DNA of 59,799 bases from a virus, in the IMG/VR virus record IMGVR_UViG_3300025694_000005, positions 1 to 59,799 of that record; one strand, given 5' to 3'. Positions 1,163 to 45,326 of this stretch are shown here, piece by piece (positions within the stretch are counted from its first letter, which is position 1; the number at the start of each line of letters is the position of its first letter). A program made the translations under genes and the position numbers. The notes beneath the pieces were generated by a model. It saw only the letters and a program-made list of their open reading frames with translations, had not been told where the DNA came from and made no database searches.

Positions 1163-1305
1163 GATCTTTTTTTCTCATCTATAAGGGATTGCTGCACAGC
1201 CTTGAGAAATTCATCAAAGCCTTTTTCGTCCTCCAACATAAGTGCGATTGCTAAATCTTTTTCTTTGCGTGCTTCTTTAATTTTATCAGAAAAAGAAAGC
1301 CCCAC
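1159..1305 (-). CDS. Small protein coupled to the methyltransferase gene
   Basis: 48 aa if it starts at the GTG overlapping the upstream stop in a TAGTG arrangement; a GAGG lies about 9 nt upstream inside the methyltransferase gene. The sequence is a plausible charged helical protein (DKIKEARKEKDLAIALMLED... ending KKRS). I do not recognise it. The hairpin at 1299-1316 covers its start, so expression would depend on read-through and coupling. The alternative start at Met23 has no ribosome binding site. Confidence 0.45.
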   Translation of the reverse strand: MGLSFSDKIKEARKEKDLAIALMLEDEKGFDEFLKAVQQSLIDEKKRS

Positions 1306-1318
1306 TACTGCGGGGCCT
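1292..1318 (-). terminator. Terminator overlapping the methyltransferase stop codon
   Basis: On the minus strand GGCCCC and GGGGCT-type arms around an 8-nt loop are followed by TTTCTTTTTCTG. The 5' arm encodes the last codons, A-P-Q-stop, of the methyltransferase. The same sequence recurs at 2556-2573. Confidence 0.7.
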
Positions 1319-1874
1319 CATCGTACGTCTCTCTTGCTAACTCATTCGCTAAGTCACTCTGTTCCTTACTAGCGGGAGGAACGAAGAACACACCTTTCGG
1401 AAGCCTTCCAGTGTCGTCCCAAACATACCAAGCATAGTCAGTCGCATCAGTTCCTCGCCCCGTGAAGGACGGTCGCTTCGACAATACATGCAATGCCGTA
1501 GGAGTATTCTCCTTCCACCACTCATGACGCCCAATACTACCAAGAAAGTTAATTCTTAGTAGCATGAGGCAAGTATTACTATGTGCTAGTGAATGATCGA
1601 TAAACTCCTTAGCGATACTAAAGGGAGGATTTGTAAGAATCAGATCCGTACCTTCATTCCATTCGAAGAAATCTTTATCCTCAGTAATCTCACTATAGGT
1701 GCAGGTTAAACCGCACTCCTCTTCGAGAAAGTACTGAATGCGACCATCTCCTCGACAAGGCTCGTGAGCGTTCTCGAAGAGTGACCAATCTATTTCTAGA
1801 TTCTCATAACACCACGGCGGTGTTGCGTAAAAGTCAGTCGGGTTAAGCCGCAGCCCTGTTTTTTGTCTTGACAT
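1305..1874 (-). CDS. DNA adenine (N6) methyltransferase-like protein
   Basis: 189 aa. Amino-methyltransferase motif IV, TNPPFS, is at residues 81-86 (catalytic N/DPPY/F class) and a SAM-binding glycine motif, EPCRGDGRI, at 38-46. The N-terminal FYATPPW also resembles phage adenine methyltransferases. It would methylate adenine in DNA; the target sequence cannot be read off. It has a GAGAGGAAC ribosome binding site and lies 31 nt downstream of the MutH/Sau3AI-like nuclease, apparently in one operon. Together they could protect phage DNA and cut unmodified DNA, or act in mismatch-repair-like strand marking; that link is inferred. Confidence 0.8.
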   Translation of the reverse strand: MSRQKTGLRLNPTDFYATPPWCYENLEIDWSLFENAHEPCRGDGRIQYFLEEECGLTCTYSEITEDKDFFEWNEGTDLILTNPPFSIAKEFIDHSLAHSNTCLMLLRINFLGSIGRHEWWKENTPTALHVLSKRPSFTGRGTDATDYAWYVWDDTGRLPKGVFFVPPASKEQSDLANELARETYDEAPQ

Positions 1875-1905: not shown

Positions 1906-2466
1906 TCATGCTAATATTGCTTTTGCTTTTTGTGCTCTAGGAGGATACACTCCAAAAAATAAATAATGAGAGGCAGGTCTAGAAATATATAAGGATCTAG
2001 TTTTTTTAGCTTCTCCACCTTTCCCTTGAGTTTTAGAAACCCATATTTCTGTGTCTTTTTGTGAACAATTCATTGGGCCTTTTGAAATGATCCAATCTAC
2101 TTCTTTGTCAAAATATTCTTTAAATATAGGATTTTCTTCTAGTATTCTAAGAATTTTACAATATACAATTTGACCTGCTAAATTTCGACCTACAACTAAT
2201 ATGTTTTCTAGTTTCTTTTTAATATAGTCCTTTTCCCATGTGCTACAAATCCTAAAGTCTTCTTTTACCTGACCTTTTTCATTAAGAGAAAAAGTTTTTA
2301 ATTCACCATCTTCAAAGTCTAACTGCTTAGTACCAGGCTTAATACCTAAAATCTTTTCTAAAGCCATACCGTTAGCTCCTTTGTTTTTCTGAGTACTTTC
2401 TGCTAAGACGCACTCTGCACTATGTACGTAGGGGGTTATCAAATTATATGCTTCTTCAGTTTTCAT
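1906..2466 (-). CDS. MutH/Sau3AI-like restriction endonuclease
   Basis: 186 aa. The block NKGANGMALEKILGI followed by LDFEDGELKT matches the MutH/Sau3AI nuclease core: Glu37, Asp50, Glu55 and Lys57 fit the E...D...ExK metal-binding set. Known family members cut at or next to GATC, MutH nicking unmethylated DNA and Sau3AI making double-strand breaks. Here the specificity is unknown. It is the first gene after the promoter at 2500-2528, whose spacer palindrome contains two GATC sites, and it is followed by an adenine methyltransferase. The nuclease fold is a strong call; its in vivo role is inferred. Confidence 0.82.
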   Translation of the reverse strand: MKTEEAYNLITPYVHSAECVLAESTQKNKGANGMALEKILGIKPGTKQLDFEDGELKTFSLNEKGQVKEDFRICSTWEKDYIKKKLENILVVGRNLAGQIVYCKILRILEENPIFKEYFDKEVDWIISKGPMNCSQKDTEIWVSKTQGKGGEAKKTRSLYISRPASHYLFFGVYPPRAQKAKAILA

Positions 2467-2499: not shown

Positions 2500-2528
2500 A
2501 TTATACACGGATCGAGGATCCGTGTCAA
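2500..2528 (-). promoter_or_regulatory. Consensus sigma70 promoter with palindromic GATC operator
   Basis: Minus strand TTGACA (2528-2523), 17-nt spacer, TATAAT (2505-2500). The spacer is filled by a perfect inverted repeat with arms ACACGGATC (2505-2513) and GATCCGTGT (2517-2525) and a 3-nt centre, reaching into the -35 and -10. Each arm contains GATC. It drives the nuclease and methyltransferase genes. Confidence 0.85.
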
Positions 2529-2555
2529 GAATTATTTTTCTTCAGGTACAAAAAA

Positions 2556-2576
2556 CCCCACTACTGCGGGGCCTTT
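2556..2576 (-). terminator. Terminator overlapping stop of a 36-aa gene
   Basis: The hairpin has the same stem and loop as the one at 1299-1316. Minus-strand transcripts from the 2561-2671 gene run through GGCCCC, loop, GGGG, then TTTTTT. The 5' arm again encodes A-P-Q-stop. On the plus strand it is followed by TTTT, so it may work both ways. Confidence 0.75.
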
Positions 2577-10300: not shown

Positions 10301-10541
10301 CAGTTCCGAATCCTGCGGAGGCTAATGCGTCTCCGTCCCAATCAAATAAATCATTGTCTCCATCATTGTAACCTTCTTCAATACGAATTTCGTTTACAAT
10401 AACTTGTTGGACTAACTCCCACGCATAATCTGCGCTAATTGAAAGCTGAACAGAAATTTCTGCTGCCATCTCTTCAGGTTCTTCGTCCCACATTGCTAAA
10501 ACAATGCTTTCTGCTTCCTGATACAACCTATCCATCATCAT
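10284..10541 (-). CDS. Acidic hypothetical protein (85 aa)
   Basis: 85 aa, strongly acidic. Helical N-terminal two thirds (LYQEAESIVLAMWDEEPEEM, ISADYAWELVQQVIVNEIR), then an Asp-rich tail (DGDNDLFDWDGD). It overlaps iscU by 4 nt, so it is probably translated with it. Its low pI may mean DNA mimicry or protein binding; this is a guess. Confidence 0.6.
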   Translation of the reverse strand: MMMDRLYQEAESIVLAMWDEEPEEMAAEISVQLSISADYAWELVQQVIVNEIRIEEGYNDGDNDLFDWDGDALASAGFGTDEDYF

Positions 10542-10915
10542 ACTTGTTTCTCTTTGTAATCCTTTATCGCAGCTTTTATAGCATCTTCTGCTAATACGCT
10601 ACAATGAATCTTAACAGGTGGAAGTGCAAGTTCATTAGCTAAGTCCGTATTTTTTATATTACCCGCCTCTTCTAAGCTCTTACCCTTTACCCACTCACTT
10701 AATAGTGAGCTGGAAGCAATAGCGCTTCCACACCCATAAGTTTTAAATTTAGCGTCTAAGATAATATTATCTTCTACGTCTATCTGTAGAACCATTACGT
10801 CACCGCACGAAGGCGCACCCACTAAGCCCGTGCCAACAGTCTGGGAATCTTTGTCGAGTTTTCCCACATTCCGTGGGTTTTCATAATGATCCATAACCTG
10901 TTCGCTGTATGCCAC
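10538..10915 (-). CDS. iscU: Fe-S cluster scaffold protein IscU
   Basis: 125 aa, full length, very close to bacterial IscU. The three cluster-binding cysteines are present (Cys37 in GAPSCGD, Cys62 in YGCGSAIASSS, Cys105 in KIHCS), as are Asp39 and His104. The LPPVK motif (98-102), the HscA chaperone site in E. coli, is intact, so it could plug into a host Isc machinery. IscU builds [2Fe-2S] clusters from IscS sulfur and hands them to client proteins. It is an auxiliary metabolic gene here; Fe-S clients in the window include the Bfd-like protein. Strong family call; phage role inferred. Confidence 0.93.
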   Translation of the reverse strand: MAYSEQVMDHYENPRNVGKLDKDSQTVGTGLVGAPSCGDVMVLQIDVEDNIILDAKFKTYGCGSAIASSSLLSEWVKGKSLEEAGNIKNTDLANELALPPVKIHCSVLAEDAIKAAIKDYKEKQV

Positions 10916-15077: not shown

Positions 15078-15199
15078 AAGTAAGGATTTCCTTGATACAT
15101 TTCAGGGTGTTTGACAAGCATCATACTGCTTTGCCAGTTAGTATATAACAATCCAGCTAGAATTGCTATAGTTAAAATTGTATTTCTAATACGTTTCAT
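15074..15199 (-). CDS. Small membrane protein (41 aa)
   Basis: 41 aa from the ATG overlapping the thyX stop (ATGA). Basic start (MKRIRN), one hydrophobic helix (TILTIAILAGLLYTNW), and a short polar tail. Not recognised; a possible lysis or membrane factor given the lysozyme downstream. Confidence 0.6.
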   Translation of the reverse strand: MKRIRNTILTIAILAGLLYTNWQSSMMLVKHPEMYQGNPYL

Positions 15200-15825
15200 G
15201 AGTCTCCCCAGACGTCTCCACCGTTTTGGCAGAGAATCTCTTTGCAGGCTACTGCAATTTCTGAACACTCTTTTTGAGTGCCGTTCCCACCTCGTAGGTC
15301 GCAGAAGTGCATCCACGAACGAAGTGTACCAGTCATATATAATCGAGAATGAGTGTTACCCTCGGGCAATACTGCCCTCGCCTGTTCTTTTGCAATACCC
15401 ATACTTATAGCCCATTTGTAGGCTTCAGTAGAGACATCGATTACTTCTCTCTGTTTAGCGTGCCAAGCAATTTCCAGCCCATCATTATCCGCAGGAATAC
15501 TATTCTGTCGGTTACGCGGGTCTTGCAGCCTAGCCTCTCTAGTAGAGAAATCTAATGCTTGAGTAGGGTCTGCATAGCGTTGACTAAATTCCTGAAAACT
15601 AAAAGAGCGATGCCGCAGAATCTGGCGAGCAATGTCTCTCGTAGTCTCGATTTCAATGCAAGCACTTGCCATTTCGAATGGGCTGAAGTGTGCTTCTTTT
15701 TTAAGGTACTTCAACAACTTCGGTGCTGTTCTCTCGTTGTCTTGATTTGCAGGATTACTAACTCTCGCACAATAGGCGATGACTTTCATGGCTTCGGGGG
15801 TAATCCAAACTAGGTTTACTTTCAT
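15196..15825 (-). CDS. thyX: FAD-dependent thymidylate synthase
   Basis: 209 aa. The ThyX signature RHRxxSxxxxSxR is at residues 71-83 (RHRSFSFQEFSQR). It makes dTMP from dUMP using methylene-tetrahydrofolate, FAD and NADPH, feeding phage DNA synthesis with the NrdA/NrdB pair at 39.7-42.5 kb. It is the first gene of the leftward unit from the promoter at 15850-15878. Length and motif fit the family. Confidence 0.95.
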   Translation of the reverse strand: MKVNLVWITPEAMKVIAYCARVSNPANQDNERTAPKLLKYLKKEAHFSPFEMASACIEIETTRDIARQILRHRSFSFQEFSQRYADPTQALDFSTREARLQDPRNRQNSIPADNDGLEIAWHAKQREVIDVSTEAYKWAISMGIAKEQARAVLPEGNTHSRLYMTGTLRSWMHFCDLRGGNGTQKECSEIAVACKEILCQNGGDVWGDS

Positions 15826-21337: not shown

Positions 21338-21981
21338 GAAGAGGTATTAAAAAACAAGAAGGAGAAAATCTAACTGATGCAAACATTAAAAAGGTTATAC
21401 GACTTTTGTCAGCGGAAAAGCCGATTACAAAAAAAGAAGCGTGTAGTATTCTTAATATTAGCTATAATACCAGTCGCCTTTCTAAAGTTATTGAAGATTA
21501 TGAGAGCGACCAAGAGTACCGAAGAACCCGAAAAGCACAGAAGCGTGGCAGACCCGCTGACAATGCTGAAATTGCAGAAATCGTAGAGTCTTACCTTACG
21601 GGAGAAAGCTTTACCGATATTGCTAGAAGAATATTTCGCTCTGTTGCTTTTGTCAAAACTATCGTTGAGAAACTGGGAGTCCCAGGAAGGGTCGCTGGTG
21701 ATGAACGATATGAAATGGAATACTTGCCCGATGAGTGTGTATCCGATAGCTTTGCTGTTGGAGAAGTTGCTTGGTCAGCCAAGTACCACACTTCGTGTGA
21801 AGTAATGGCAACTCTTGACGCCACACACGAACAAGGCTACGGCCCCTGTTATCGTGTGTGGATAAGAGAGGTTAGTAATGAGGACAATCTTGGGGGAGGC
21901 TATAATGCTTTTGTTCCCGCATATGACCTCGGTAAATTGGAGCATTTGAAAACTTATGGAATCAATACCGCTAGAGTTTAG
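21334..21981 (+). CDS. DNA-binding transcription regulator-like protein
   Basis: 215 aa. Residues ~17-60 form one helix-turn-helix candidate (ITKKEACSILNISYNTSRLS), then an AT-hook-like KRGRPAD, then a second HTH candidate (ESFTDIARRIFRSVAFVKTI). The C-terminal half (GEVAWSAKYHTSCEVMATLD to FVPAYDLGKLE) is beta-rich and may bind a ligand or polymerase. Conserved in marine phages in my recollection. Likely a middle-gene regulator; target unknown. Confidence 0.6.
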   Translation: MRRGIKKQEGENLTDANIKKVIRLLSAEKPITKKEACSILNISYNTSRLSKVIEDYESDQEYRRTRKAQKRGRPADNAEIAEIVESYLTGESFTDIARRIFRSVAFVKTIVEKLGVPGRVAGDERYEMEYLPDECVSDSFAVGEVAWSAKYHTSCEVMATLDATHEQGYGPCYRVWIREVSNEDNLGGGYNAFVPAYDLGKLEHLKTYGINTARV

Positions 21982-22234: not shown

Positions 22235-22341
22235 ATGTTTTTGAAATTGAGGAAAGTATGGGATATAATTTTTACATGCGACAACTTGAAGCGACTGGCA
22301 ATGCTGCCGGTCTACCTTTTAAACCAAACAGGAGAAAGAAA

Positions 22342-22704
22342 ATGGCGTGGACTGACGAATCCAAGCAACAGGCAATTGATGCCTACACAAGTGAAGAACC
22401 AACTCCAGAGAACTCTATGGAGATTGTAAAAGCTATCGCAGAAGACATGGGTGAGAGCCCTAATGGTGTGCGAATGATTCTAACCAAAGCTGGAGTATAT
22501 GTAAAGAAAACTCCTGCTGCTTCTAGTGGCGGTGCTAAAGCCGCTTCAACTGGCGGAACTCGAATCAGCAAAGCTGCCGCACAGGAAGCACTCACAGCAG
22601 CTCTTAATGATGCTGGTGTAGCTATTGATGAGGATATTGTTTCAAAGCTCACTGGTAAAGCTGCACAATACTTCGCAGATGCTATGAATAAAGTAGCTTC
22701 TTAA
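22342..22704 (+). CDS. HTH-repeat DNA-binding protein (single unit)
   Basis: 120 aa from the ATG after AGGAGAAAG; an in-frame ATG at 22258 with its own GAGGA could add 28 residues. Residues 3-56 are one copy of the HTH unit (WTDESKQQAIDAY, EIVKAIAEDM, PNGVRMILTKAGVYVKK). An Ala/Gly/Ser linker leads to a helical C-terminal domain (SKAAAQEALTAALNDAGVAI). Closely resembles a protein of T4-like cyanophages. Probably binds DNA; role unknown. Confidence 0.7.
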   Translation: MAWTDESKQQAIDAYTSEEPTPENSMEIVKAIAEDMGESPNGVRMILTKAGVYVKKTPAASSGGAKAASTGGTRISKAAAQEALTAALNDAGVAIDEDIVSKLTGKAAQYFADAMNKVAS

Positions 22705-34242: not shown

Positions 34243-34271
34243 TTGACACGGGAGCTATTTCCCCGTATAAT
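34243..34271 (+). promoter_or_regulatory. Consensus sigma70 promoter with inverted repeat in the spacer
   Basis: TTGACA (34243-34248), 17-nt spacer, TATAAT (34266-34271). ACGGG and CCCGT arms lie in the spacer. Drives the SSB and recombination gene block. Confidence 0.85.
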
Positions 34272-38912: not shown

Positions 38913-39740
38913 ATGGAACCAAATAAGAATGCTCTTATTGTTGACGGAATGAATTTAGCATTTCGTTGGAAGCATCAAGGAAAACTAGATTTTGAACTAG
39001 ACTATGTGCGAACAGTGGAAAGTCTAGCTCAATCATACGAATGTAGTAAGATTATTATTGCAGGCGACTGGGGAAGTAGCGCATATAGAAAGCATATAGA
39101 CCCACAGTATAAAGAAAACAGAAAGGAAAGATATAAAGATCAAACGGAGCAAGAGAAGGAAGACATTAAACTTTTCTTCGAAGAGTACGAAAGAACACTA
39201 GAAACTTTAAACGATAAGTTTTTGGTTCTTCGATACTTCCAAGTAGAAGCGGACGATTTAGCGTCTTATGTTGCAGTTCATAGAGAAAAGTTCGGTATCA
39301 ATGATATCTGGCTAATTTCTAGTGACCGAGATTGGGATTTATTAGTAAATGAAAATGTGTCTAGGTTCTCTACTGTAACTCGTAAAGAGACTACAGTATT
39401 TAACTGGGATGAGTTTTTCGACTTTCCTCAAGAAGATTATATCTCTTTTAAAGTCTTGACAGGAGATAAAGGAGATAATATTGATGGAGTTCCAGGGATT
39501 GGCCCTAAAAGAGCTACTGAACTTCTTCAACAGTATGGTACAGCATTTGATATTTATGATGCTTTACCGATAGATAGTAGGTATAAATATATTCAGTCTC
39601 TTAATGCGAGCAAGGATCTAATACTAAAAAATTATAGGATGATGGATTTGATAAGCTATTGTGCTGAAGCAATTGAACATCCTGGGCATAGTCTACTAGA
39701 AATAGACGAACGAGTAAAGGAATATATAAATGTTAATTGA
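38913..39740 (+). CDS. 5'-3' exonuclease / flap endonuclease (RNase H-like)
   Basis: 275 aa from ATG 38913; a GTG at 38889 could add 8 residues. LIVDGMNLAFRW, IIAGDWGSSAYRK, EADDLASYVA, SSDRDWDLLV and TGDKGDNIDGVPGIGPKRA (metal-binding Asp set and helix-3-turn) match the T4 RNase H/T5 exonuclease family. Removes RNA primers and flaps, replacing the missing domain of the polymerase. Confidence 0.9.
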   Translation: MEPNKNALIVDGMNLAFRWKHQGKLDFELDYVRTVESLAQSYECSKIIIAGDWGSSAYRKHIDPQYKENRKERYKDQTEQEKEDIKLFFEEYERTLETLNDKFLVLRYFQVEADDLASYVAVHREKFGINDIWLISSDRDWDLLVNENVSRFSTVTRKETTVFNWDEFFDFPQEDYISFKVLTGDKGDNIDGVPGIGPKRATELLQQYGTAFDIYDALPIDSRYKYIQSLNASKDLILKNYRMMDLISYCAEAIEHPGHSLLEIDERVKEYINVN

Positions 39741-41493
39741 TTATGGAAGAGATCGTCTTCTATCTAAGTTTGGTATTCAAACGCTAGAAGATAGATATTT
39801 TATTGAAGGTGAATCGTCGCCTCAAGACGCTTTCGCACGTGCGGCGAGAGCCTTTGCAGATGACGAAGCTCACGCACAGCGATTGTATGATTACGCAAGC
39901 AATCTGTGGTTTATGTTTTCTACTCCAATTCTTTCGAATGGAGGGACTACTCGTGGACTACCTATTTCTTGTTTTCTCAACTACGTTGAAGATAGCAGAG
40001 AAGGGCTAACAGGGCACTATACGGAGAATGCATTCTTGTCTTCCGTAGGTGGTGGCGTGGGCGGAAGCTGGAGCAGCATTCGCTCTGTAGGTTCACGCAC
40101 AAGTAACGGAAGCGAAAGCACCGGCGTTATCCCTTTTATGAAAGTGGTTGACGCAGAGATGCTGGCTTTCTCACAAGGAGTAACTAGGAGAGGTTCATAT
40201 GCAGCTTATTTACACATTTCTCATCCCGAGATTGAGGAGTTTCTCGATGTACGCAAGCCTACTGGCGGCGATATCAATAGAAAGTCTACCAATCTTCATC
40301 ATGCTGTGGTCATTCCTGATAGCTTTATGAAGCTAATCGCGCAAGCGACACAAGAGCCCGGATTTGATGATAGCTGGGATTTGGTTGACCCTCATAGTGG
40401 GGAAGTAACGAATACTGTTGCTGCAAAAGCACTCTGGGTGAAGCTCATTCAGAACCGTGTAGAAACTGGCGAACCTTACATTATGTTTGAAGACGCAGTA
40501 AATAATGACTTGCCCGAGTTTCAAAGAAACTTAGGCTTGCGTGTTCACCACTCTAACCTGTGTTCAGAGATTACTCTGCCTACAAACGAAGAAAGAACGG
40601 CAGTATGTTGTCTTTCTAGTGTGAATTTGGAAGAGTATGAAAGCTGGAAGAATATTCCCGAGTTCATTCCCGACTTAGTTCGTATGCTAGATAATGTACT
40701 AGAATTCTTCATTCAGCACGCACCTTCTTCTCTTGAAAAAGCGAAGTTTAGTGCAATGAGAGAGCGTTCAATTGGTCTTGGAGCGATGGGTTTTCATGCC
40801 TATCTTCAGCGACACAATATTGCTTTTGAAAGTGCGATGGCAAAGAGTGCTAATATGAGAATGTTTTCTCAAATCAAGACGGAAGCTGTAGCGGCTACAG
40901 AACAGCTTGCAAAGGAAAGGGGCCCTTGCCCCGATGATGCAAGCGGTCGAGTGCGTAACGCTCATCTTCTTGCTATCGCCCCAAATGCTAGTAGTAGTAT
41001 TATTTGTGGAAACACGAGTCCGAGCATCGAGCCTTATCGTGCGAATGCTTTCACTCAGAAAACAAAGTCTGGTACAAGTCTTCTGAAAAACGAATACTTG
41101 GAGCATGTTCTTGACGAGCTAGGAATGGATACAGACGAAGTGTGGAAAGATATTATGACACATGGAGGCAGCGTTCAGCATCTTGACTTTCTCGATACTT
41201 GGACGAAAGATGTATTCAAAACAGCCGTTGAACTTGACCAGCGCTGGGTTGTAGAGTTTGCAGCAGACCGACAGCAGCATATTTGCCAGTCACAATCTGT
41301 AAACTTATTCTTTCCCGCAGATGTAAGTAAGCAGGAACTACACAATGTTCATATGCTTGCTTGGCGACGTGGTATGAAAACATTGTACTATGCAAGAAGT
41401 GAAGCATACAAACGTGCAGAAGTTGTGTCTGACGAGAAACTAAGAGATTTTATATTTGACGACGAAGATTCGTGTCTAGCTTGTGAGGGGTAG
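39730..41493 (+). CDS. nrdA: Ribonucleoside-diphosphate reductase, alpha subunit
   Basis: 587 aa. Catalytic features: SCFLNYVEDS (redox Cys region), HHSNLCSEI (active-site Cys with Asn/Glu), LAIAPNASSSIICGNTSPSI and a C-terminal CLAC redox pair. The ATP-cone regulatory domain is missing, so the overall control by dATP is probably lost. Converts ribonucleotides to deoxyribonucleotides with NrdB. Overlaps the exonuclease by 11 nt. Confidence 0.93.
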   Translation: MLIDYGRDRLLSKFGIQTLEDRYFIEGESSPQDAFARAARAFADDEAHAQRLYDYASNLWFMFSTPILSNGGTTRGLPISCFLNYVEDSREGLTGHYTENAFLSSVGGGVGGSWSSIRSVGSRTSNGSESTGVIPFMKVVDAEMLAFSQGVTRRGSYAAYLHISHPEIEEFLDVRKPTGGDINRKSTNLHHAVVIPDSFMKLIAQATQEPGFDDSWDLVDPHSGEVTNTVAAKALWVKLIQNRVETGEPYIMFEDAVNNDLPEFQRNLGLRVHHSNLCSEITLPTNEERTAVCCLSSVNLEEYESWKNIPEFIPDLVRMLDNVLEFFIQHAPSSLEKAKFSAMRERSIGLGAMGFHAYLQRHNIAFESAMAKSANMRMFSQIKTEAVAATEQLAKERGPCPDDASGRVRNAHLLAIAPNASSSIICGNTSPSIEPYRANAFTQKTKSGTSLLKNEYLEHVLDELGMDTDEVWKDIMTHGGSVQHLDFLDTWTKDVFKTAVELDQRWVVEFAADRQQHICQSQSVNLFFPADVSKQELHNVHMLAWRRGMKTLYYARSEAYKRAEVVSDEKLRDFIFDDEDSCLACEG

Positions 41494-43038: not shown

Positions 43039-43857
43039 TTAAACAAACCCGTAATAAATACCAATTTCTCGATAAATATCTGGTTGACTTGTTGCAGTTT
43101 CTCTAGTCCTAAAAATTAAGGGTGAAGATGCACTCGTATTTGAAATTACAGCTTCTTCCATTAAAATTCTAAAAGAGAGTTGAAAATTTCTTCCTCCGAA
43201 TACACTATCCATAGGATTAGTCATGAGGGAGTTCAAAAGGTTTCTTTCAACATTATCATTGTAAAAACGTATATTGCCAACACTCCAGTAGTTGGTAAAA
43301 TTCGCTCCAGAGCCCCCATTAGTATTAAATCTGTTCAAGGTCCTTGGATTGACTAAAGATCCATTAATCCAGCCCGAGCCAGGAGGTTGGACTGACATTG
43401 TAATCTTCCCGCCTGTATACGCACTTTTATACTGAATAGTAAATATTGCAAATCTACCCTGGAGGACACTTAGATTGCTTGGACCTAAGTTATTTCCATC
43501 ATAACCATACCCCAGGGTAGGAATAGTACCTCCAGTAGCCGAACTAGAAACTGTAGCAGTAACAAAACCAAAATCACTTAGTAACTCAACAGCCATATCT
43601 CCATTACTAAAAGTTGTTATAAATCGATTACTAAAAGAATCTTCATCGTAGCCATACCGTGTTTTACTATAAAAATCACTCATACTAAGATTAGTATCTT
43701 GAGGCATTCCAGGAGTAGAGTCACTGTCTAATGGATGTCCTATCCACCATCTCATACTTACATTACTTTGAGTCTTAACTCCTTCATAAACCGGACCATT
43801 CATCTCGGTAAAAATTTCACTAAAAGATAACGAAGACCCTGAAGCTTTTATTGTCAT
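43039..43857 (-). CDS. Tail fibre/receptor-binding protein
   Basis: 272 aa. Opens with TIKASGSSLSFSEIFTEMNG and PQDTNLSMSDFYSKT, a repeatable opening of phage distal tail proteins, then a long Ser/Gly/Asn-rich beta region. Overlaps the collagen-like gene by 4 nt. Probably a fibre tip or adhesion protein. Confidence 0.6.
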   Translation of the reverse strand: MTIKASGSSLSFSEIFTEMNGPVYEGVKTQSNVSMRWWIGHPLDSDSTPGMPQDTNLSMSDFYSKTRYGYDEDSFSNRFITTFSNGDMAVELLSDFGFVTATVSSSATGGTIPTLGYGYDGNNLGPSNLSVLQGRFAIFTIQYKSAYTGGKITMSVQPPGSGWINGSLVNPRTLNRFNTNGGSGANFTNYWSVGNIRFYNDNVERNLLNSLMTNPMDSVFGGRNFQLSFRILMEEAVISNTSASSPLIFRTRETATSQPDIYREIGIYYGFV

Positions 43858-45326
43858 TGTTTTTTCTCCACAATCTCATTCAAGTCTTTGATCGCTTCAA
43901 TAAGTAGAGCACTAATTCTGTCATATTTAACGGCTAAAGTTCCATCAGGTCTCTCTACCACTAGTTCGGGCAAAACTTTTTTAAGTTCTTGTGCTATAAC
44001 CCCTACATCTTTTTTCCTCATAAAATAAGGATCTTCTCCCCCATGCTCAACCATGTACTCATCCGTCCAATCAAACGTTATTCCAGAGAGTGATTTTACT
44101 TTTTCTATGCTGTTGGTTATAGGAAGGATATTTTCTTTAAATCTTGAGTCTGAAGAGTAGAAAGCAGTAATATCCCCTGTTGCTCTAATAGACCCAGCTC
44201 CTCCGGTCGCGATGACCCCAACACCCAAAGAATTAACTTGTGCGTTAGAATTAGTTGAAAAGCCTCCTGTAGCTCCTTGAGCACCTTGAGCACCTTGAGC
44301 ACCTTGAGGTCCAGCACCACCTCCAGCACCTTGAGTACCTTGAGCACCTTTAGTACCTGTAGCACCTTGAGTACCTTGAGCACCTTGAGTACCTTGAGCA
44401 CCTTGAGTACCTTGAGCACCTTTAGTACCTGTAGCACCTTTAGAACCTTGAGTACCTTGAGCACCTTTAGAACCTGTAGCACCTTTAGAACCTGTAGCAC
44501 CTTTAGAACCTGTAGCACCTTTAGAACCTGTAGCACCTTTAGAACCTGTAGCACCTTGAGAACCTGTAGCACCTTTAGAACCTGTAGCACCTTTAGAACC
44601 TGTAGCACCTTTAGAACCTGTAGCACCTTTAGAACCTGTAGCACCTTGAGAACCTGTAGCACCTTGAGAACCTGTAGCACCTTTAGAACCTGTAGCACCT
44701 TTAGAACCTGTAGCACCTTTAGAACCTGTAGCACCTTGAGTACCTTGAGCACCTCCAGCACCTTGAGCACCTTTAGAACCTGTAGCACCTTGAGCACCTT
44801 TAGCACCTTGAGTACCTTGAGCACCTTGAGGACCTGGTTGAGAAGCTGCATAGGCTTCTGTAGCTAGAGCACTCCCCGCAACTTCTAGCTTACCTGACCC
44901 TATACTTAAAGTAGTACCGCCCATAACTAAACTAGTACCGCTTAAATATAAGTCTCTGAACTGAAAGGTAGGGCTACCTAGGTCAAAACCAGTGGTTCCG
45001 TCTGAGTTTACGTTCGGAATAATACTAGCCCCTACATTAATAGAACCACCGAACTCTGCTATTCGAACCTCGCCACCGGCATCCACTTCAATGCTAGGTA
45101 TTCCAGATCCATCCGCAACAGAGAAGATTGTTCCTGTTAAATCATTTGAAATTGAAAAGAGCTGACCTGCGCTGCCTTCGAAACTTAAAGTAGACGTTGT
45201 ACCATCGTCGACTGTGGATAACGTAATAGGATCGCCACTCGTTGCCCCGCTTGAGAATACTATCTTAGGGTCGGCAGCAGCGCTCGTATTTGGGGTAATA
45301 AGTATGTCTTTATCTGAATCTGCCAT
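43854..45326 (-). CDS. Collagen-like tail fibre with S74 chaperone domain
   Basis: 490 aa. An N-terminal beta-rich head domain, about 180 residues of Gly-X-Y collagen repeats (mostly GATGSK, GAQGTQ units), a short beta segment, and a C-terminal peptidase S74 domain beginning DSRFKENI with the Ser/Lys pair of the self-cleaving chaperone. The S74 domain helps trimer folding and is then released. First gene after the promoter at 45368-45396. Confidence 0.9.
   Translation of the reverse strand: MADSDKDILITPNTSAAADPKIVFSSGATSGDPITLSTVDDGTTSTLSFEGSAGQLFSISNDLTGTIFSVADGSGIPSIEVDAGGEVRIAEFGGSINVGASIIPNVNSDGTTGFDLGSPTFQFRDLYLSGTSLVMGGTTLSIGSGKLEVAGSALATEAYAASQPGPQGAQGTQGAKGAQGATGSKGAQGAGGAQGTQGATGSKGATGSKGATGSKGATGSQGATGSQGATGSKGATGSKGATGSKGATGSKGATGSQGATGSKGATGSKGATGSKGATGSKGATGSKGAQGTQGSKGATGTKGAQGTQGAQGTQGAQGTQGATGTKGAQGTQGAGGGAGPQGAQGAQGAQGATGGFSTNSNAQVNSLGVGVIATGGAGSIRATGDITAFYSSDSRFKENILPITNSIEKVKSLSGITFDWTDEYMVEHGGEDPYFMRKKDVGVIAQELKKVLPELVVERPDGTLAVKYDRISALLIEAIKDLNEIVEKKQ
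44270..44840 (-). repeat. Tandem DNA repeat coding for collagen Gly-X-Y
   Basis: Many copies of an 18-nt unit close to GCTACAGGTTCTAAAGGT (minus strand), mixed with 9-nt ACTCAAGGT-type units. This tract can expand or contract by slippage and is a hot spot for length change. It also makes long false reading frames in the other frames. Confidence 0.95.

What the first reader, a model, noticed from the sequence alone, without database searches (positions are those of the whole stretch)
2500..2528. Perfect palindrome with two GATC sites fills the promoter spacer of the nuclease gene
Arms ACACGGATC and GATCCGTGT, 3 nt apart, lie between and over the -35 and -10. If the neighbouring methyltransferase modifies GATC, its own operon could be switched by methylation or by a repressor bound to this site. 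This would let the nuclease be made only after protection is in place, or turn itself off.
Basis: partly seen in the sequence, partly recalled or inferred. Interest (0 to 1): 0.7.

Follow-up and report, generated by a model that had tools for sequence, protein, structure and literature searches.

The report
Conserved GATC-pair operator in phage promoters
A short sequence with two GATC sites sits inside the promoter of a virus's DNA-methylating-enzyme genes and is kept almost letter for letter in related viruses whose genes have drifted far apart, which suggests the virus uses it as a dedicated on/off switch for making the enzyme.

Summary
On the minus strand, 2528-2500 is a perfect TTGACA-N17-TATAAT promoter in front of a nuclease-methyltransferase operon, and its spacer holds ACACGGATC-CTC-GATCCGTGT. 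Relatives correct the picture. The conserved unit is not the 9-bp palindrome but a 15-nt element, GATCCTCGATCCGTG, next to the -10. It occurs in 15 distinct promoters (window included), while the two spacer bases before it vary freely. Orthologous promoters in the same phages share about 5.6 of these 15 positions; element promoters share about 14.7. The element follows the methyltransferase, not the nuclease: it stands before a MutH/Sau3AI-like nuclease, before an unrelated PD-(D/E)XK nuclease, and before the methyltransferase alone. It is the only GATC-bearing consensus promoter in each of 18 records. One 29.7-kb relative keeps 4 GATCs of 69 expected, and two of the 4 are these. The window nuclease folds like MutH and Sau3AI, both GATC enzymes. 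Best explanation: a dedicated operator through which the methyltransferase limits its own operon, most likely by GATC methylation, as in CfrBI or LlaDII. Specificity and read-out were not tested. A repressor blind to methylation stays possible. 'Nuclease only after protection' fits the gene order poorly.

The parts
2523..2528 (-). -35 hexamer TTGACA
   Evidence: exact consensus
2500..2505 (-). -10 hexamer TATAAT, 17-nt spacer
   Evidence: exact consensus
2506..2520 (-). conserved operator-like element GATCCTCGATCCGTG filling spacer positions 3-17
   Evidence: present in 15 distinct promoters of the family, 12 of 17 spacer columns invariant
2517..2520 (.). first GATC site
   Evidence: sequence; invariant in 15 of 15 distinct promoters
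2510..2513 (.). second GATC site
   Evidence: sequence; invariant in 15 of 15 distinct promoters
2505..2525 (.).
2529..2539 (-). A-rich upstream block AAAAATAATTC shared with most promoters of this phage
1906..2466 (-). MutH/Sau3AI-like PD-(D/E)XK nuclease, 186 aa
   Evidence: NCBIfam MutH models E 2e-6 and 9e-6, below cut-off; AlphaFold model nearest to MutH (Z 14.1) and Sau3AI (Z 12.9)
1305..1874 (-). DNA (probably N6-adenine) methyltransferase, 189 aa, phrog_799, NPPF motif
   Evidence: phrog_799 E 8.6e-47; 574 phage records with relatives
1296..1319 (-). intrinsic-terminator-like hairpin ending the operon
2550..2573 (-). near-copy of that hairpin upstream of the promoter; with the first it brackets the operon
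   Evidence: direct repeat D14, 82% identity; not listed by the terminator scan

Best explanation
The two-GATC element in the promoter spacer is a dedicated cis-regulatory site of the phage's methyltransferase transcription unit. Most likely the methyltransferase recognises GATC. As it accumulates, it methylates (or sits on) the two sites between the -35 and -10, which lowers initiation at an otherwise consensus-strength promoter and so limits the operon's own products. Shown here: the promoter, the element, its extreme and specific conservation, its near-single copy per record, and its link to the methyltransferase rather than to the nuclease.
For: Conservation: element-promoter pairs whose first genes are 50-70% identical share on average 14.66 of the last 15 spacer bases (61 pairs); other orthologous promoters in the same contigs at the same divergence share 5.60 of 15 (206 pairs). 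Link to the methyltransferase: of 22 loci fetched by the methyltransferase alone at 74% identity or more, 17 have the element, 3 are cut before the promoter, 2 lack it. It precedes a MutH-like nuclease (window), an unrelated PD-(D/E)XK nuclease (13 distinct, 8 of them scanned as PDDEXK_11), or the methyltransferase alone (L046). Uniqueness: GATCN3GATC occurs once per record in 16 of 17 element records, twice in the other. In each of 18 element records (window included) exactly one near-consensus promoter holds a GATC, this one. Retention against avoidance: G001 has 4 GATCs in 29,672 b (69 expected), 2 of them in the element; GATC is the most depleted of 256 tetramers in 6 of 18 element records. 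Nuclease: all 8 Foldseek PDB matches at E<=1e-3 are MutH or Sau3AI. Control: the same pattern with CATG gives 0 hits in IMG/VR and with GTAC one distinct sequence, against 13 distinct family promoters with GATC. Precedent: promoter methylation regulates CfrBI, AhdI and LlaDII methyltransferase genes (review PMC12707154, section 10 read).
Against: The methyltransferase's specificity is unknown: no characterised relative was found, and its model is poor (pLDDT 60.5). Bases outside the GATCs are also invariant (column 8 and CGT at columns 14-16), which a pure methylation read-out does not need and a sequence-specific binding protein would explain. A second clade of the methyltransferase (71-72% identity, 7 loci) and L039/L040 have no element, though L033, L034 and L036 carry a MutH-like nuclease with the methyltransferase. 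L026 and L027, at 77-78%, also lack it. Several element records hardly avoid GATC (G016 0.82, G017 0.78, G009 0.77). The nuclease and methyltransferase cannot be assumed to share a site.
Confidence: 0.5

Rival explanations
1. The element is the operator of a phage-encoded DNA-binding protein that is not the methyltransferase, for example the HTH protein encoded next to it in many relatives or the GcrA-like protein encoded downstream; GATC methylation may or may not modulate binding.
For: Invariant bases extend beyond GATC to CGT next to the -10. An HTH protein gene (HTH_58, E 1e-4) ends 9-10 nt before the -35 in G001-G005, G009, G010, G014 and G017 (G015 partial), and a homologue lies in the window at 21346-21978. 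A GcrA-like or phrog_1725 'DNA binding protein' occurs in the window and in 15 of the 17 other element records.
Against: Both proteins also occur where the element is absent (HTH protein in G018 and L027, GcrA-like in G018), and the element has essentially one copy per record, so a general regulator would have a single target. The HTH gene is not adjacent in the window, G007, G008 or G013.
Confidence: 0.3
2. The GATC pair is a replication-coupled or host-coupled methylation sensor: a Dam-type host enzyme or SeqA-like reader acts on it, as for IS10, IS50 or Mu mom promoters, and the phage methyltransferase has another specificity.
For: Two closely spaced GATCs in a promoter are a classic arrangement for such control (recalled, from no call). 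The phages avoid GATC strongly in several records, so GATC status matters in their hosts.
Against: The element follows the phage methyltransferase gene across divergent contexts, and GATC is absent from the other near-consensus promoters, 117 of 117 in 18 records. The host and its methylation are unknown.
Confidence: 0.12
3. Safety lock: the GATC-cutting nuclease cleaves its own promoter unless the methyltransferase has protected it, so nuclease synthesis without protection shuts itself off.
For: The window nuclease belongs by fold to GATC enzymes. In G001 the promoter holds 2 of only 4 GATCs.
Against: The element is kept in L046, where no nuclease precedes the methyltransferase. The window has 109 other GATC sites to be cut.
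Confidence: 0.05
4. No regulatory meaning: the spacer is conserved by recent transfer of whole cassettes.
For: Nuclease and methyltransferase do occur in varying combinations, as if moved as cassettes.
Against: Genes behind the element are 43-84% identical and leaders have diverged, while 12 of 17 spacer columns are invariant and columns 1-2 are free.
Confidence: 0.03

Closest known systems
CfrBI restriction-modification system (promoter methylation)
   Same: A methyltransferase site inside an inverted repeat in the methyltransferase promoter; methylation by the enzyme lowers transcription of its own gene (review PMC12707154 section 10)
   Different: CfrBI has divergent R and M genes with overlapping promoters; here one promoter drives nuclease then methyltransferase, in a phage, with two sites in the spacer; a methylation effect is not shown here
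LlaDII and AhdI systems
   Same: Only the methyltransferase gene's own promoter is affected by methylation (review)
   Different: Bacterial systems; here the nuclease is co-transcribed and exchangeable
MutH / Sau3AI nuclease family
   Same: Fold (VIA Z 14.1 and 12.9) and residues E37, D50, E55, K57, invariant in 5 of 5 relatives and aligned to the MutH catalytic motif
   Different: Far below the MutH curated cut-off (27 of 243 bits); 186 aa; phage operon with a methyltransferase; specificity untested
GATC-controlled promoters of mobile elements and phages (IS10, IS50, Mu mom, P1 cre; recalled)
   Same: GATC methylation state inside or beside a promoter gates transcription
   Different: There the host Dam enzyme writes the mark; here the controlled gene is itself a methyltransferase and the sites are a conserved pair in the spacer
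Regulatory methyltransferases M.SsoII and M.Ecl18kI
   Same: The methyltransferase regulates its own promoter (abstract starts; review)
   Different: They use an N-terminal HTH region; this enzyme is 189 aa and no such domain was detected

Membership tests
R-M systems autoregulated by promoter methylation (CfrBI, LlaDII, AhdI) | the regulated promoter drives the methyltransferase gene | tested here: met
   promoter 2528-2500 precedes the nuclease and methyltransferase ORFs on one strand; 16 of 17 family hits of the promoter pattern show the methyltransferase downstream, the 17th (L048) ends before it. That transcription runs through both genes is inferred
R-M systems autoregulated by promoter methylation (CfrBI, LlaDII, AhdI) | the promoter contains the methyltransferase's own recognition site | tested here: inconclusive
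   two invariant GATCs present; the enzyme's specificity is not known
R-M systems autoregulated by promoter methylation (CfrBI, LlaDII, AhdI) | methylation changes promoter activity | not testable with these tools
   needs reporter or in vitro transcription
MutH/Sau3AI nucleases | MutH-type PD-(D/E)XK fold | tested here: met
MutH/Sau3AI nucleases | catalytic E, D, ExK | tested here: met
   E37, D50, E55, K57 invariant in 5 sequences and aligned with MutH; their role in MutH is recalled
MutH/Sau3AI nucleases | cleaves at GATC | not testable with these tools
   needs the enzyme
MutH mismatch-repair equivalog (NCBIfam) | score over the curated cut-off | tested here: not met
   27 of 243 bits, 25 of 229.9 bits
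Type II R-M system | adjacent nuclease and methyltransferase of one specificity | tested here: inconclusive
   adjacent genes; specificities unknown
Methyltransferase-repressor with N-terminal HTH (SsoII type) | N-terminal HTH domain | tested here: not met
   only an EcoRI_methylase match, no HTH family; invariant columns begin at residues 1-3 and 10-30, leaving no room for an added domain
C-protein controlled R-M | small HTH controller gene co-transcribed ahead of the nuclease | tested here: not met
   only 33 nt lie between the promoter and the nuclease start

The most novel reading that the evidence does not exclude
A one-locus epigenetic switch in a phage: genomes under strong GATC avoidance keep a GATC pair almost only in the promoter of their own GATC methyltransferase, so the methylation state of that single promoter reports replication or modification of the phage DNA and times the operon, whatever nuclease is plugged into it.
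Probability: 0.25. Interest if true: 0.82.

Novelty: new variant of a known kind. Interest (0 to 1): 0.62.

Why it matters
If true, phage-encoded methyltransferases, usually seen as anti-restriction shields, would carry a built-in self-limiting switch, and the same regulatory cassette would accept different nucleases. It gives a concrete predicted specificity (GATC) for a widespread phage methyltransferase family (phrog_799; relatives in 574 deposited phage records), and a 15-nt motif that can be mutated and assayed directly. It also turns the question of how a phage balances a nuclease with its own protection into a reporter experiment.

Tried and rejected
Exact 21-nt palindrome in IMG/VR: no other copy; this first looked like lack of conservation and was explained by the variable outer arms once relatives were aligned. 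Relatives by the nuclease alone: only one further contig, cut off before the promoter. Deposited phages: no match to the nuclease by tblastn, no near match to 16.6 kb of the replication region, and no convincing match to the 81-nt promoter region (28 records, best E 0.7, partial). Bacterial and archaeal genomes: the 21-nt element plus -10 gave 0 hits; the methyltransferase profile gave one distant hit, 32% identity.

Considered and rejected: direct-repeat reading (GATCC-TC-GATCC), because base 7 changes to T in L023 and L046 while both GATCs stay; extended -10, because the bases before the -10 are GTG, not TGN (sequence; rule recalled); the element as the nuclease's own site only, because L046 has no nuclease; L051/L052 as members, because the match there has another spacer and unrelated genes (one distinct sequence).

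The methyltransferase model (pLDDT 60.5) gave only weak Foldseek matches, best E 4.6e-3 (TrmM, M1.HpyAVI), and was not used for specificity. Profile search of the second nuclease in the PDB gave nothing useful. Its weak Pfam matches to DpnII-MboI, DpnII and BglII (E 0.03-0.11) are noted but not relied on. hhalign of the nuclease profile with E. coli MutH gave probability 20%, E 1e-3, over 76 columns of the N-terminal half only, so the MutH DNA-recognition loop could not be aligned. Papers on CfrBI (PMC110769) and LlaDII (PMC305755) were not held. Literature: nine searches listed no paper that, by title and start of abstract, describes a phage methyltransferase promoter with a conserved GATC pair; this is not proof of absence.

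Full report
What is there. The window is one IMG/VR virus record of 59,799 b, a phage with T5-like replication genes (DNA polymerase about 43% identical to that of T5-like phages, the label T5-like recalled; D5-like regulator). The minus strand carries a compact unit: promoter 2528-2500, nuclease 2466-1906, methyltransferase 1874-1305, terminator 1319-1296, with a near-copy of the terminator hairpin just upstream of the promoter. The promoter is a perfect TTGACA-N17-TATAAT, one of ten in the window; the reversed pattern has none. The palindrome is as described.

Chance. Perfect inverted repeats of this size occur 8 times in the window against 2.6 +/- 2.2 in a Markov model, so the palindrome by itself would be weak evidence. 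The decisive evidence is comparative.

Relatives. The nuclease alone finds one further contig, cut off before the promoter. The methyltransferase finds 34 loci; three at 26-32% identity (L042-L044) were dropped. Of 22 loci at 74% identity or more, 17 (13 distinct promoter sequences) have upstream of the operon a consensus promoter whose spacer ends in GATCCTCGATCCGTG or a 1-base variant. L015, L018 and L029 are truncated before the promoter, and L026 and L027 lack it. None of the 9 loci at 72% or less (L032-L040) has it. A scan of all IMG/VR for TTGACA-NN-GATC-NNN-GATC-NNNN-TATAAT gave 19 stretches. Seventeen belong to this family (16 with the methyltransferase visible downstream; L048 ends too soon), and two (L051, L052, one distinct sequence) are unrelated. 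That scan added L046, in which the methyltransferase alone follows the promoter. Controls with the same letters rearranged gave 0 (CATG) and 4 stretches of one single sequence (GTAC).

What is conserved. In the 15 distinct promoters (window included) spacer columns 3-6, 8 and 10-16 are invariant; column 7 is C in 13, column 9 C in 14, column 17 G in 14. Columns 1-2 vary. GATC itself was required in this collection of 15, but the methyltransferase-first search was not made on it, and the seven non-GATC columns are free in any case. Across the same contigs, orthologous promoters of other genes share 5.60 of the last 15 spacer bases at 50-70% identity of the first protein (206 pairs), against 14.66 for element promoters (61 pairs); pairs are not independent. 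So the spacer is a selected site, not inherited inertia.

What it goes with. The first gene behind the element is a MutH-like nuclease in the window, an unrelated PD-(D/E)XK nuclease in 13 distinct cases (one similarity cluster; Pfam PDDEXK_11 in 8 of 8 scanned, best E 7.7e-14), two of which (L013, L019) have an additional ATPase-like gene before the methyltransferase, and nothing in L046. The constant partner is the methyltransferase. In a 27-row tree of the enzyme the element-bearing rows need 3 changes against a shuffled mean of 8.1. A MutH-like nuclease with the methyltransferase also exists in L033, L034 and L036 in another clade, with an ordinary promoter spacer and no GATC.

GATC in these genomes. 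GATC is the most depleted of 256 tetramers in G001-G005 and G014, second in the window (111 against 177 expected), and only mildly depleted in G006, G007, G009, G016 and G017. G001 keeps 4 GATCs in 29,672 b where 69 are expected, and 2 of the 4 are the element; a simple binomial gives 1.3e-6 for two of four falling in that one spacer. In 18 element records (three pairs are near-duplicates) 135 near-consensus promoters were counted; 18 hold a GATC, one per record, always this one. The GATCN3GATC spacing occurs once per record in 16 of 17 records, twice in G010.

The proteins. The nuclease model (pLDDT 79.7, 5-row alignment) matches MutH and Sau3AI above everything else: 8 of 8 Foldseek matches at E<=1e-3, VIA Z 14.1 (MutH) and 12.9 (Sau3AI), then MvaI/BcnI at 7.4. 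MutH and Sau3AI act at GATC (recalled). E37, D50, E55 and K57 align with the MutH catalytic motif and are invariant. The methyltransferase has the NPPF motif and belongs to phrog_799, with relatives in 574 phage records, all below 60% identity; its specificity is not known from any call.

Mechanism. Three lines point to GATC: the nuclease's fold family, the avoidance in many of these genomes, and the conserved pair. Near-single copy per record, constant linkage to the methyltransferase and position between -35 and -10 point to feedback on that enzyme's own unit. I therefore favour self-limitation by methylation of, or binding to, the pair (0.5). The invariant CGT beside the -10 and T at column 8 are not explained by GATC methylation alone and leave room for a separate DNA-binding protein (0.3), for which an HTH protein gene ending 9-10 nt before the -35 in many relatives is a candidate. 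'Nuclease only after protection' fits badly: one promoter, nuclease first.

Known precedents. The review PMC12707154 (section 10 read in full; passages) describes promoter methylation in CfrBI and, for the methyltransferase gene only, in AhdI and LlaDII. The present case would be a phage version with a paired site inside a consensus spacer and an exchangeable nuclease. Membership is not claimed, because the enzyme's site was not determined.

Noticed in passing
L017, L019, L020, L021, L022, L031, just after the element promoter (e.g. L019:3029-3066): In 6 of 15 element promoters an intrinsic-terminator-like hairpin (13 pairs in L019) with 7-10 T follows the -10 at once, before the nuclease gene, with paired changes between loci; a possible leader attenuator. 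Absent in the window.
   Followed up: partly
L013, L015, L018, L019 (L001:547-2130, P0001): An about 510-aa ATPase-like protein (GxxKGGKT) with no Pfam family over its cut-off and no PHROG match sits between nuclease and methyltransferase in some relatives.
   Followed up: partly
window 2874-2846 (-): The neighbouring perfect promoter also carries an inverted repeat, TTGACAT-GGAG-ATGTCAA, overlapping its -35.
   Followed up: no
window 34243-34271 (+): Another perfect promoter has ACGGG...CCCGT in its spacer; not conserved in its orthologues.
   Followed up: partly
window, ten sites listed: The phage uses a family of perfect sigma-70 consensus promoters with an upstream AAAAATAATTC block, shared with its relatives.
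   Followed up: partly
window 21346-21978 and 22258-22704: HTH protein and GcrA-like/phrog_1725 DNA-binding protein that lie near the methyltransferase operon in many relatives but elsewhere in the window.
   Followed up: partly
window 10538-10915, 15196-15825, 39730-41493: NifU-like iron-sulphur scaffold, Thy1 (ThyX-type thymidylate synthase) and ribonucleotide reductase genes.
   Followed up: no
window 43854-45326: Tail-fibre-like protein region with 9-nt-periodic (collagen-like) repeats from about 44149 on.
   Followed up: no
records G012, G013, G018, G019: CCGG is strongly avoided (o/e 0.00-0.12), and GGCC too in some; other restriction pressures in relatives.
   Followed up: no
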